Shown here one piece after another: positions 55,126 to 64,000 of a DNA stretch of 64,000 nucleotides; the stretch's first letter is position 1; the number at the start of each line of letters is the position of its first letter. The notes under the pieces were generated by a model. That model worked only from the letters and a program-made list of their open reading frames with translations, ran no database searches and was not told the DNA's origin. This stretch comes from Tenacibaculum sp. MAR_2010_89. Its GTDB lineage: Bacteria > Bacteroidota > Bacteroidia > Flavobacteriales > Flavobacteriaceae. Position numbers and translations under genes: made by a program. The stretch spans positions 2,232,001 through 2,296,000 of the forward strand of contig NZ_FNUB01000005.1 of assembly GCF_900105985.1 (NCBI RefSeq), given 5' to 3'.

Positions 55126-55650
55126 TTAAATACGCTCTATTTTTTTTGAAAAAACTGTATTTTCATATTCAGTTTCATCTACTTTAAATTGTAAACTTCC
55201 AATTTTTTTGAAATTGTTTTTTAGATAAAATTGTATGGCTCTATTGTTTTTTATGTAAACAGAAAGCCAAATACAGTCAAAATTTAAAGAGATAGCTTTG
55301 TTTATAAGAATATCATATAATTGCTGACCAATTTTTAATGGTAGAAACTCATTAAGAATATAAATTCGTTCCAGTCGACATGAATTTTCAGGTGTTTCAT
55401 TATTAAAAGTAGCTCTTAAAACTAGTTTAGCATATCCAACGGGTAAATTGTTTATATAGACTAGGTAGAATAGATTATTAGTATCACTTAAAGATTCTTT
55501 TATTTTTTTTAAGGAAAAAGCCTCATTGTTATAATTTAACAGGTGTTTTTTATTGTCAATGTATTCTCCATGAGATTCAGAATAAGTAATTCTACCTAAT
55601 AAGGCAAGAATTTCAGCATCAGAAGTAGTTGCTGTTCTAATGGTAATCAT
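55126..55650 (-). CDS. GNAT-family N-acetyltransferase
   Basis: 174 aa. ITIRTATTSDAEILALLGRITYSESHGEYI at the N-terminus, LVYINNLPVGYAKLVLR, LERIYILNEFLPLKIGQQLYDILINKA with the acetyl-CoA pyrophosphate loop, and NNRAIQFYLKNNFKKIG. Substrate unknown. Third gene of the DinB-DUF1272-GNAT-PPOX operon. Confidence 0.88.
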   Translation of the reverse strand: MITIRTATTSDAEILALLGRITYSESHGEYIDNKKHLLNYNNEAFSLKKIKESLSDTNNLFYLVYINNLPVGYAKLVLRATFNNETPENSCRLERIYILNEFLPLKIGQQLYDILINKAISLNFDCIWLSVYIKNNRAIQFYLKNNFKKIGSLQFKVDETEYENTVFSKKIERI

Positions 55651-58990: not shown

Positions 58991-59482
58991 TTATAATTCT
59001 TTAATCATCCATACATTGCAGGAAAAATGTCCAGTATCTCCCATAGGTTTATCTAAGTTAACAAAACCATTTTTTTTATATAAAGCTCTAGCAGCATCCA
59101 TATAGGGCATAGTTTCTAAATAGCAGTGTTCAAAGCCTTGTTTTTTGGCTTCTTTTAAAGAAAAATCAATAAGCTTACTTCCAAGTCCTTTTCCTCTAGC
59201 TATAGGTAAAAAATACATCTTTTGAAACTCACAAACATTACCTTCAAAATTATTGAGTTTAGAAAAACCAGCACCTCCAACTATTTTATTTTTGTGTTCA
59301 ATAATATAATAACCAGCATTCTCTTCTTGATAAGTTTCATACATTTCATCAGTAGCACTGTCTTCATAAGCAGTACCAACTTTAGGTACACCAAACTCAA
59401 TTAAAACATTACGAATAACGGTAGCAATTTGCTTATTATCCTCAGGTTTAATTTCTCTTATAATAAAATCAGATGGTATCAT
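58991..59482 (-). CDS. GNAT-family N-acetyltransferase
   Basis: 163 aa from ATG 59482 (MIPSDFIIREIKPEDNKQIATVIRNVL); a longer frame to 59509 would cover the promoter. Acetyltransferase motifs GAGFSKL, EFQKMYFLPIARGKGLGSKLIDFSLKEAKKQGFEHCYLET and AARALYKKNGFVNLDKP. The N-terminal EFGVPKVGTAYEDSATDEM is frequent in a GNAT group of Bacteroidota; substrate unknown. Confidence 0.88.
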   Translation of the reverse strand: MIPSDFIIREIKPEDNKQIATVIRNVLIEFGVPKVGTAYEDSATDEMYETYQEENAGYYIIEHKNKIVGGAGFSKLNNFEGNVCEFQKMYFLPIARGKGLGSKLIDFSLKEAKKQGFEHCYLETMPYMDAARALYKKNGFVNLDKPMGDTGHFSCNVWMIKEL

Positions 59483-59492
59483 AGGAATGTAG

Positions 59493-59514
59493 TATTTTTG
59501 TACGTACAAAATTA
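59493..59514. promoter_or_regulatory. face-to-face -7 boxes over a 16-bp palindrome
   Basis: Plus strand TATTTTTG (59493-59500) and minus strand TAATTTTG (59507-59514) share the palindrome TTTTGTACGTACAAAA (59496-59511). The two predicted transcripts overlap at their 5' ends, one into the GNAT gene and one into the lipoprotein gene. Confidence 0.45.
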
Positions 59515-63201: not shown

Positions 63202-63693
63202 ATGGAAAACTTCTTAACTTTTTTAACAGAACATTCCAGTGGCATTATAATACTTATTTTGCTTATGTTTTCTTGTTTAATAATGATAAACTGGCTTGCA
63301 AAAATTTTTAATTGGGGTAAGTACAAAAACCCCGAAGTTAATAGTAAAGACTATGGTAATTTAATTTATGTAACAACGCAATTTTTTGCTAATTTAATAA
63401 ATGATTTTAAGCACTTTTTAGCTTTAGTTATCATAATAATTTTTGCTGGTTTAATAGTGTATTCTATGGCAGCTACTCCAGATTTTAATAATAAAATGAA
63501 AGCGTTACAACTTGTAATAGCTTCATTAGGAGGTATAGTTGGTACAGTCATAGGATATTATTTTGGAGAATCTGCAGCAAGAACGAATTCATCTAGAATA
63601 ACAACAACAAATGAGGTTACTCAATTAGACACTATTGAAAATAATTCAATAGAAGAAGAAATTCAACAAGCTCCTGAAATTGAAGAAAATTAA
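63202..63693 (+). CDS. two-TM membrane protein paired with the YEATS-domain gene
   Basis: 163 aa. Two or three hydrophobic stretches: about 12-34 (SGIIILILLMFSCLIMINWLA), 72-92 (FLALVIIIIFAGLIVYSM) and a Gly-rich 105-125 (LVIASLGGIVGTVIGYYFG), with GYYFGESAA at its end. The C-terminus is a Thr/Glu/Asn-rich cytoplasmic or periplasmic tail of about 40 residues. I do not recognise a named family. Only 6 bp separate its stop from the next ATG, so the two products are likely made together. A signalling or membrane-anchor role for the YEATS partner is inferred. Confidence 0.65.
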   Translation: MENFLTFLTEHSSGIIILILLMFSCLIMINWLAKIFNWGKYKNPEVNSKDYGNLIYVTTQFFANLINDFKHFLALVIIIIFAGLIVYSMAATPDFNNKMKALQLVIASLGGIVGTVIGYYFGESAARTNSSRITTTNEVTQLDTIENNSIEEEIQQAPEIEEN

Positions 63694-63699
63694 GAGGTT

Positions 63700-64000
63700 A
63701 TGAATAGTAGAGTAAAAACATATGATATAAAAGTACGTGACTCGATTTTTAGCCCGAATAAAAAAGGGGTAAATAAAGAGTTGATTGCTCATTATAAAAA
63801 AAATACATCTAGAAGTAGTAAAACACTATATAAAGTATATTTATTTATAGAGGGTAAAGATTTGCCTTTTATTAAAAAAGTTAAATATACACTACATAAA
63901 ACCTTTAGAAACCCAGTTAAAACCATTGAAAGAAAATCTGATAATACAAATTGTTCATTAGTAATTTGGACATGGGGCCTTTTTAATATAAAAGTTGAAT
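63700..64000 (+). CDS. YEATS-domain protein (prokaryotic YEATS), 3' end cut by window edge
   Basis: ATG 63700, 100 codons visible before the edge; about the first 45 residues are variable and basic (HYKKNTSRSSKTL). From residue 46 the sequence aligns with the YEATS core of eukaryotic GAS41/AF9: YKVYLFIEGKDLPFIKKVKY, then TLHKTFRNPVKTIER and VIWTWGLFNIKVE. In eukaryotes the matching stretch is KKIQFKLHESYGNP and GWGEFEI, where the His/Ser/Tyr loop and the WG block form the acyl-lysine binding cradle. Bacterial YEATS proteins are rare and uncharacterised. Full domain architecture lies outside the window. Confidence 0.72.
   Translation, partial: MNSRVKTYDIKVRDSIFSPNKKGVNKELIAHYKKNTSRSSKTLYKVYLFIEGKDLPFIKKVKYTLHKTFRNPVKTIERKSDNTNCSLVIWTWGLFNIKVE

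What the first reader, a model, noticed from the sequence alone, without database searches (positions are those of the whole stretch)
63202..64000. Membrane protein plus bacterial YEATS-domain module at the right edge
The last gene aligns by eye with eukaryotic YEATS domains over the diagnostic stretch: KKVKYTLHKTFRNP against KKIQFKLHESYGNP of human GAS41, and TWGLFNIKVE against GWGEFEIIIKI. YEATS domains read acylated lysines in eukaryotic chromatin; bacteria have no such chromatin marks, so a bacterial YEATS protein must read something else. It is linked by a 6-bp gap to a gene for a membrane protein with a Gly-rich TM and an acidic tail. A membrane-coupled sensor of acylated protein or lipid ligands, possibly in a conflict or signalling system, is a testable idea. 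The function statement is inference; the sequence match is direct.
Basis: partly seen in the sequence, partly recalled or inferred. Interest (0 to 1): 0.85.

Follow-up and report, generated by a model that had tools for sequence, protein, structure and literature searches.

The report
Two-gene bacterial membrane YEATS-reader module
A bacterial relative of the YEATS domain, which in our own cells reads acyl tags on lysines, is encoded beside a small membrane protein of no named family, and the two stay side by side in bacteria from several phyla, so they very likely work together; what they sense is not known.

Summary
Gene 63202-63693 encodes a 163-aa membrane protein with three predicted helices. 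Six bases later, gene 63700-64098 (98 bases past the edge, read in L003) encodes a complete 132-aa single-domain YEATS protein; there is no C-terminal effector. Profiles (PF20305 1.5e-20; PF03366 2e-7) and the AlphaFold model (pLDDT 90; the 50 PDB matches shown all YEATS) agree. The domain is known: Pfam has it, and I recall it from Burroughs and Aravind 2020. The added value is the module. Of 24 loci found with the membrane family, 23 have the pYEATS gene directly downstream, in six phyla by record title; the 24th contig ends too soon. The acyl-lysine sandwich residues are kept in nearly all pairs. No third gene recurs; defence evidence is scattered (an IetA-like ATPase lies downstream in the window's genome). 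Most likely a cytosolic acyl-ligand reader is tethered to, and controls, a membrane oligomer. Ligand, contact and output are inferred; a single-chain fold gave no sign that the tail docks. Verdict: real, a new variant of a known kind, with an unnamed partner family that makes 'do bacteria have acyl-lysine readers?' testable.

The parts
63202..63693 (+). 163-aa membrane protein, three predicted helices and an acidic tail; family without a Pfam or NCBIfam name
   Evidence: ORF; hydrophobic segments; helices in the fold of a relative (L012); 50 protein clusters at E up to 1e-3; no Pfam family or NCBIfam family above its cut-off
63700..64000 (+). single-domain prokaryotic YEATS protein, 132 aa; the gene runs on to 64098, 98 bases outside the window
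   Evidence: Pfam; PDB profile; AlphaFold model of the 99%-identical P0001; Foldseek; VIA-align; full gene in L003 5701-6099
63694..63699 (+). 6-bp spacer; the purine-rich stretch AAGAGG just before the pYEATS start overlaps the stop codon of the first gene

Best explanation
The pair is one two-subunit membrane sensor. Shown: the second gene encodes a single YEATS domain without a hydrophobic segment, with the acyl-lysine sandwich residues kept; the first encodes a protein with three predicted membrane helices; the two genes are inherited together. Inferred: the YEATS subunit sits on the cytoplasmic face near the acidic tail of the membrane subunit, holds an acyl-lysine (or a similar flat acyl or aromatic group) between F69 and W92, and binding changes the state of the membrane subunit, whose Gly-rich third helix probably packs into an oligomer (channel or scaffold). 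The trigger is most likely the acylation state of cytoplasmic or envelope-associated proteins, a readout of acetyl-phosphate or acyl-CoA stress or of infection.
For: Pairing: 23 of 24 loci fetched with the membrane family carry a pYEATS gene directly downstream on the same strand; 20 of 24 pairs (those 23 plus the window's) have gaps between -11 and +24 bp, four with a 4-bp overlap. Pairwise identities of the two proteins rise and fall together over 24 pairs: Pearson r 0.74, reached by 0 of 2000 permutations; Spearman 0.47. Pocket, by alignment, in 24 pairs: H66 24, S/T68 24, F69 23, W92 24, G93 24, F95 24. In Taf14, W81 and F62 sandwich the acyl-lysine and T61 bonds its amide (PMC6212594, passages). 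Fusion logic: in the 8 Bacteroidota genomes other than the window's own that rang for PF20305 (9 of 395 in all; one of the 8, L036, below cut-off), each protein carries at least one hydrophobic segment in the same chain, though in L035 it may be a signal peptide. Membrane tails are acidic in 23 of 24 pairs.
Against: No ligand or output was tested. A single-chain fold of the L012 pair left the tail under pLDDT 50 (residues 136-194), overall pTM 0.46, so it gave no sign of docking; coordinates and pairwise errors were not shown. The YEATS subunit is basic in only 16 of 24 pairs, so charge attraction is not general. No Pfam family recurs in more than 2 of 89 neighbours, so no constant writer or eraser of acylation travels with the pair. 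Pocket roles are mapped by alignment, not from a ligand complex; T91 replaces the glycine of the eukaryotic GWG motif. The covariation can come from shared ancestry.
Confidence: 0.45

Rival explanations
1. Anti-phage effector pair: the membrane subunit is a holin-like pore and the YEATS subunit releases it on sensing infection.
For: Sporadic distribution: 1 of 58 genomes of the genus in the sample, that one being the window's own. An AAA ATPase like IetA of the IetAS system lies two ORFs downstream in the window's genome (PADLOC 5e-63). By eye, a PIN/antitoxin-like gene pair and an ATPase lie upstream of the L025 pair and contractile-tail-like genes beside L018; PIN domains hit 2 of 89 neighbours. 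Weak holin matches in 9 and 8 of 50 family members. A congener has the site without the pair (L042). Prokaryotic YEATS domains were placed in immune systems by Burroughs and Aravind 2020 (recalled; paper not held).
Against: Among 89 neighbours of 22 other pairs no PADLOC family hit more than one (57 families at 1e-10, listed by number of members). The membrane protein and the pYEATS protein match no PADLOC family; of 29 pYEATS relatives one matched, a Cas6 model at 0.042. No relative in viral contigs with the membrane profile, nor in phage or plasmid records with the pYEATS protein or in plasmids with two divergent relatives. Holin matches are weak.
Confidence: 0.25
2. The YEATS cradle does not read a mark; it clamps a peptide of its own partner or another protein and acts as a structural adaptor.
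For: The membrane tail ends in a loosely conserved proline motif (P158 in at least 90% of 50 rows). [quoted passage not shown]
Against: The single-chain fold gave no sign of docking of that tail, and the tail alignment is loose.
Confidence: 0.2
3. A nucleic-acid-binding YEATS: the basic domain binds DNA or RNA at the membrane.
For: Net charge +10 in the window's protein over its core; AF9 YEATS binds DNA at a site apart from the acyl pocket (PMC6212594, passages).
Against: Only 16 of 24 members are positively charged, while the acyl pocket is kept in nearly all.
Confidence: 0.06

Closest known systems
Pfam PF20305, prokaryotic YEATS domain
   Same: Sequence profile over the whole domain, far above cut-off.
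   Different: The eight other proteins looked at carry a hydrophobic segment in the same chain. Here the YEATS domain is a separate protein without one, next to an unnamed three-helix partner, and has an extra Trp (W-x-W-G; 24 of 24 pairs, absent in L029 and L030, the two others aligned).
Eukaryotic YEATS readers Taf14, Yaf9, GAS41, YEATS2, AF9
   Different: Bacterial, with a membrane partner; 15-28% identity in the 50 structural alignments listed; mostly Thr in place of the Gly before the Trp (20 of 24 pairs).
Holins and small membrane effectors
   Same: Short multi-helix membrane protein with a Gly-rich helix; weak profile matches.
   Different: Matches are weak and in few members. The neighbourhoods were not searched for lysis genes as such; one cell-wall hydrolase family, Glucosaminidase, hit 2 of 89 neighbours.

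Membership tests
YEATS domain (PF20305 / PF03366) | Profile match above the curated cut-off | tested here: met
   73.3 bits vs 26.9 and 31.3 vs 22
YEATS domain (PF20305 / PF03366) | YEATS-type immunoglobulin fold | tested here: met
YEATS domain (PF20305 / PF03366) | Aromatic sandwich and Ser/Thr of the acyl-lysine pocket | tested here: met
   By alignment in 24 pairs: H 24, S/T 24, F 23, W 24, G 24, F 24; pocket roles from PMC6212594 passages
YEATS domain (PF20305 / PF03366) | Binding of acylated lysine | not testable with these tools
   Needs a binding assay
Prokaryotic immune (conflict) system | Neighbourhood with other defence genes | tested here: inconclusive
   89 neighbours of 22 loci (of 116 selected), PADLOC at 1e-10: 57 families, each hitting one protein (which proteins is not shown); but an IetA-like ATPase two ORFs downstream in the window's genome
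Prokaryotic immune (conflict) system | Protection against phage | not testable with these tools
   Needs plaque assays
Holin | Curated holin profile match | tested here: inconclusive
   PHROG holins at best 0.0083 and 0.021, in 9 and 8 of 50 members; Pfam GTA_holin_3TM in 4 of 50, best 0.033

The most novel reading that the evidence does not exclude
A bacterial acyl-lysine reader exists as a dedicated two-gene membrane signalling module found in several phyla: a soluble YEATS subunit converts protein acylation state into the state of a membrane oligomer. That would be a reader-to-membrane circuit for lysine acylation outside eukaryotic chromatin.
Probability: 0.3. Interest if true: 0.88.

Novelty: new variant of a known kind. 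Interest (0 to 1): 0.6.

Why it matters
Lysine acetylation occurs in bacteria and regulates basic processes, yet whether bacteria have dedicated reader domains was listed as an open question in a 2021 review (PMC8556138, passages). This is a minimal, two-protein candidate with the eukaryotic pocket residues kept, small enough to purify and test. It also points to a membrane partner family that the Pfam and NCBIfam searches here did not name, and it bears on how chromatin readers relate to membrane-linked prokaryotic domains.

Tried and rejected
Effector domain beyond the edge: rejected, the protein is complete at 132 aa. Defence island: not general, but see the IetA-like ATPase at the window's own locus. 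Carriage on phage or plasmid: no match with the pYEATS protein in either collection, with one divergent membrane and one divergent pYEATS protein in plasmids, or in viral contigs with the membrane profile (102 pattern matches, none confirmed). Tail docking: no sign in the single-chain fold. The membrane family as a known Pfam family: scattered matches at E up to 0.1, Yip1 in 23 of 50 (best 5.5e-5; our own protein 15 bits vs cut-off 28.6), DUF1673 in 17, GTA_holin_3TM in 4; taken as generic membrane similarity. L015's apparent 1029-aa ORF ahead of the membrane domain was taken as a GC-rich read-through of an upstream frame, because the family's start lies near its end; not tested further. Reverse test, pYEATS without the partner: the A3 profile rang in 4 of 395 Bacteroidota genomes: the window's own, two PF20305 proteins with in-chain hydrophobic segments (G430, G333), and a fragment with four stops (G255, not examined); only one true member, so weak. 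Topology: loop charges are net positive between helices 1 and 2 in 22 of 25 members, and higher than those of loop 2-3 in 24 of 25, but in the window's own protein both are +1. Literature: 'pYEATS' alone gave 0 papers; 'YEATS, prokaryotic, conflict systems' gave one paper whose YEATS occurrences are an author's name; in the listings I saw no paper on this pair. Burroughs and Aravind 2020 (J Bacteriol, doi 10.1128/JB.00365-20) is not held; that its abstract names prokaryotic YEATS domains is recalled, and only words of its title were confirmed as present in other papers. The NCBI product name 'YEATS-associated helix-containing protein' is recalled and was found in no call; NCBIfam gave none above cut-off for the window's pair or seven relatives. 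YEATS was also sought in two further held papers, with no occurrence.

Full report
What is there. The window ends inside a gene. The window maps to G000:C5:2232001-2296000, and the stretch beyond (L003) shows that the last gene runs to window position 64098 and encodes 132 aa. The gene before it, 63202-63693, encodes 163 aa. The spacer is 6 bp. Upstream lie ordinary genes, among them a UPF0029-family gene and an EamA-family transporter gene.

The pocket is kept. In 24 pairs (the window's and 23 others) the alignment shows His66 in 24, Ser or Thr68 in 24, Phe69 in 23, Trp92 in 24, Gly93 in 24 and Phe95 in 24. In Taf14, W81 and F62 sandwich the acyl-lysine, and T61 and the backbone of W81 bond its amide (PMC6212594, passages). 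That these positions correspond follows from the profile alignment to Yaf9 and the shared LHxT(F/Y) and WG motifs. The paired subfamily has an extra Trp90 (24 of 24), which the pYEATS proteins in L029 and L030 lack.

The partner. The membrane family has 50 protein clusters at E up to 1e-3 and no Pfam or NCBIfam name for our protein. Our protein has three hydrophobic stretches. The fold of the L012 pair shows helices at 15-39, 54-95 and 99-134 and a tail of very low confidence. Loop 1-2 is net positive in 22 of 25 members, loop 2-3 in 3, and loop 1-2 exceeds loop 2-3 in 24, so by the positive-inside rule the N terminus is probably outside and the tail inside; in the window's own protein the two loops are equal, +1 each. 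Conserved motifs are DF(K/R)H at the start of helix 2 and GYYFGES at the end of helix 3.

The pair is a unit. A scan of one genome per species with the membrane family gave 24 loci. In 23 of these 24 a pYEATS gene follows directly on the same strand, at E of 7.3e-23 or better to a seven-sequence profile; in the remaining one, L017, the contig ends 150 bp after the membrane gene. By record titles (phylum of named genera from my knowledge) the 23 span Bacteroidota (10), Pseudomonadota (5), Acidobacteriota (4), Planctomycetota (2), Actinomycetota (1) and Nitrospinota (1); most are metagenome bins, so single-bin phyla need care. Gaps are between -11 and +24 bp in 20 of 24 pairs (23 plus the window's), with 4-bp overlaps in four; the other four depend in part on which start codon is chosen. 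Identities of the two proteins covary (Pearson 0.74, 0 of 2000 permutations as high; Spearman 0.47); shared species history alone can cause this, so it shows joint inheritance rather than contact.

No third gene recurs. Of 116 selected neighbour ORFs of other pairs I scanned 89 from 22 loci, having dropped long or antisense ORFs that looked spurious and those of L014; the window's own neighbours were scanned apart. No Pfam family hit more than two of the 89 (94 families, listed by number of members), and several of the doubles fit L005 and L007 sharing one site. PADLOC at 1e-10 gave 57 families, none hitting more than one protein; which proteins were hit is not shown. At the window's own locus an IetA-like AAA ATPase lies two ORFs downstream (PADLOC 5e-63), and by eye L025 has a PIN/antitoxin-like pair upstream and L018 contractile-tail-like genes downstream. 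So a defence setting is neither general nor excluded.

Distribution. In samples of 58 genomes of the genus and 395 of the phylum, no intact copy was seen outside the window's own genome (the G255 fragment with stops was not examined), although Tenacibaculum proteins of the family are listed from other strains. In L005 and L007 the pair lies between the UPF0029 gene and rpsA (rpsA named by its S1 domains); in L003 four more ORFs of at least 70 aa follow before rpsA. Of 29 congener loci around the UPF0029 gene, none holds the membrane gene in the stretch held, and three show rpsA within it: L042 directly, about 184 bp on, L038 with another ORF between, and L054 further off; the other 26 do not reach it or have other genes. 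L042 thus shows the site without the pair.

How it may work. Eight further PF20305 proteins from Bacteroidota (one, L036, below cut-off) each carry at least one hydrophobic segment in the same chain; L035 resembles a metalloprotease, so its segment may be a signal peptide. This suggests that membrane attachment is a theme of bacterial YEATS proteins, which this pair meets with two genes. The membrane tails are acidic in 23 of 24 pairs; the YEATS subunits are basic in 16 of 24, with +10 in ours. A fold of both subunits of L012 as one chain gave no sign that the tail sits on the domain: pLDDT under 50 over 136-194 and pTM 0.46; coordinates were not shown. That counts somewhat against the simple idea that the tail fills the pocket, although a single-chain fold of a likely oligomer is a weak test. 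My best account is a reader of acylated lysine, or a like ligand, that controls a membrane oligomer. Identity and pairing are shown; ligand, contact, oligomer and output are inferred.

Known or new. The domain is known from Pfam and, as I recall, from Burroughs and Aravind 2020, whose paper is not held. A 2021 review asks whether bacteria employ acetyl-lysine readers such as YEATS domains (PMC8556138, passages). I saw no paper on this two-gene module in the listings, which cover open-licence papers only and show at most 20 titles each. I therefore file it as a new variant of a known kind.

Noticed in passing
L003 6356-8075 (beyond the window edge): After the pair come a small thioredoxin-like ORF (weak matches only), an AAA ATPase close to IetA of the anti-phage IetAS system (PADLOC 5e-63, but 243 aa and covering only positions 88-312 of 374), and a MarR-type regulator. 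An IetS-like protease was not searched for.
   Followed up: partly
window 55126-55650 and 58991-59509, - strand: Two ORFs that look by eye like GNAT acetyltransferases lie within about 9 kb upstream of the pair; no family search was made on them.
   Followed up: no
L018 2571-5005; L025 215-2045: By eye, contractile-tail sheath and tube-like genes lie beside the L018 pair, and an ATPase and a PIN/antitoxin-like pair upstream of the L025 pair.
   Followed up: no
L035 676-2118: A pYEATS-like stretch (27.1 bits, just over cut-off) in a 480-aa protein with a matrixin/astacin-like region (below cut-off) and a repetitive C-terminal tail.
   Followed up: no
L070 (G255:C5:98555-98704): A degenerate match to the pYEATS profile with four stops inside, possibly a decayed copy or chance (24.1 bits).
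   Followed up: no
window 63202-63693: 48 of 50 members of the membrane family match phrog_38564, a 75-aa phage protein family of unknown function (best 1.8e-6; ours 0.00073 over residues 76-130).
   Followed up: no
P0074: A relative of the pYEATS protein is named 'transcription initiation factor IIF auxiliary subunit' by its source, a eukaryote-style label on a metagenome protein.
   Followed up: no
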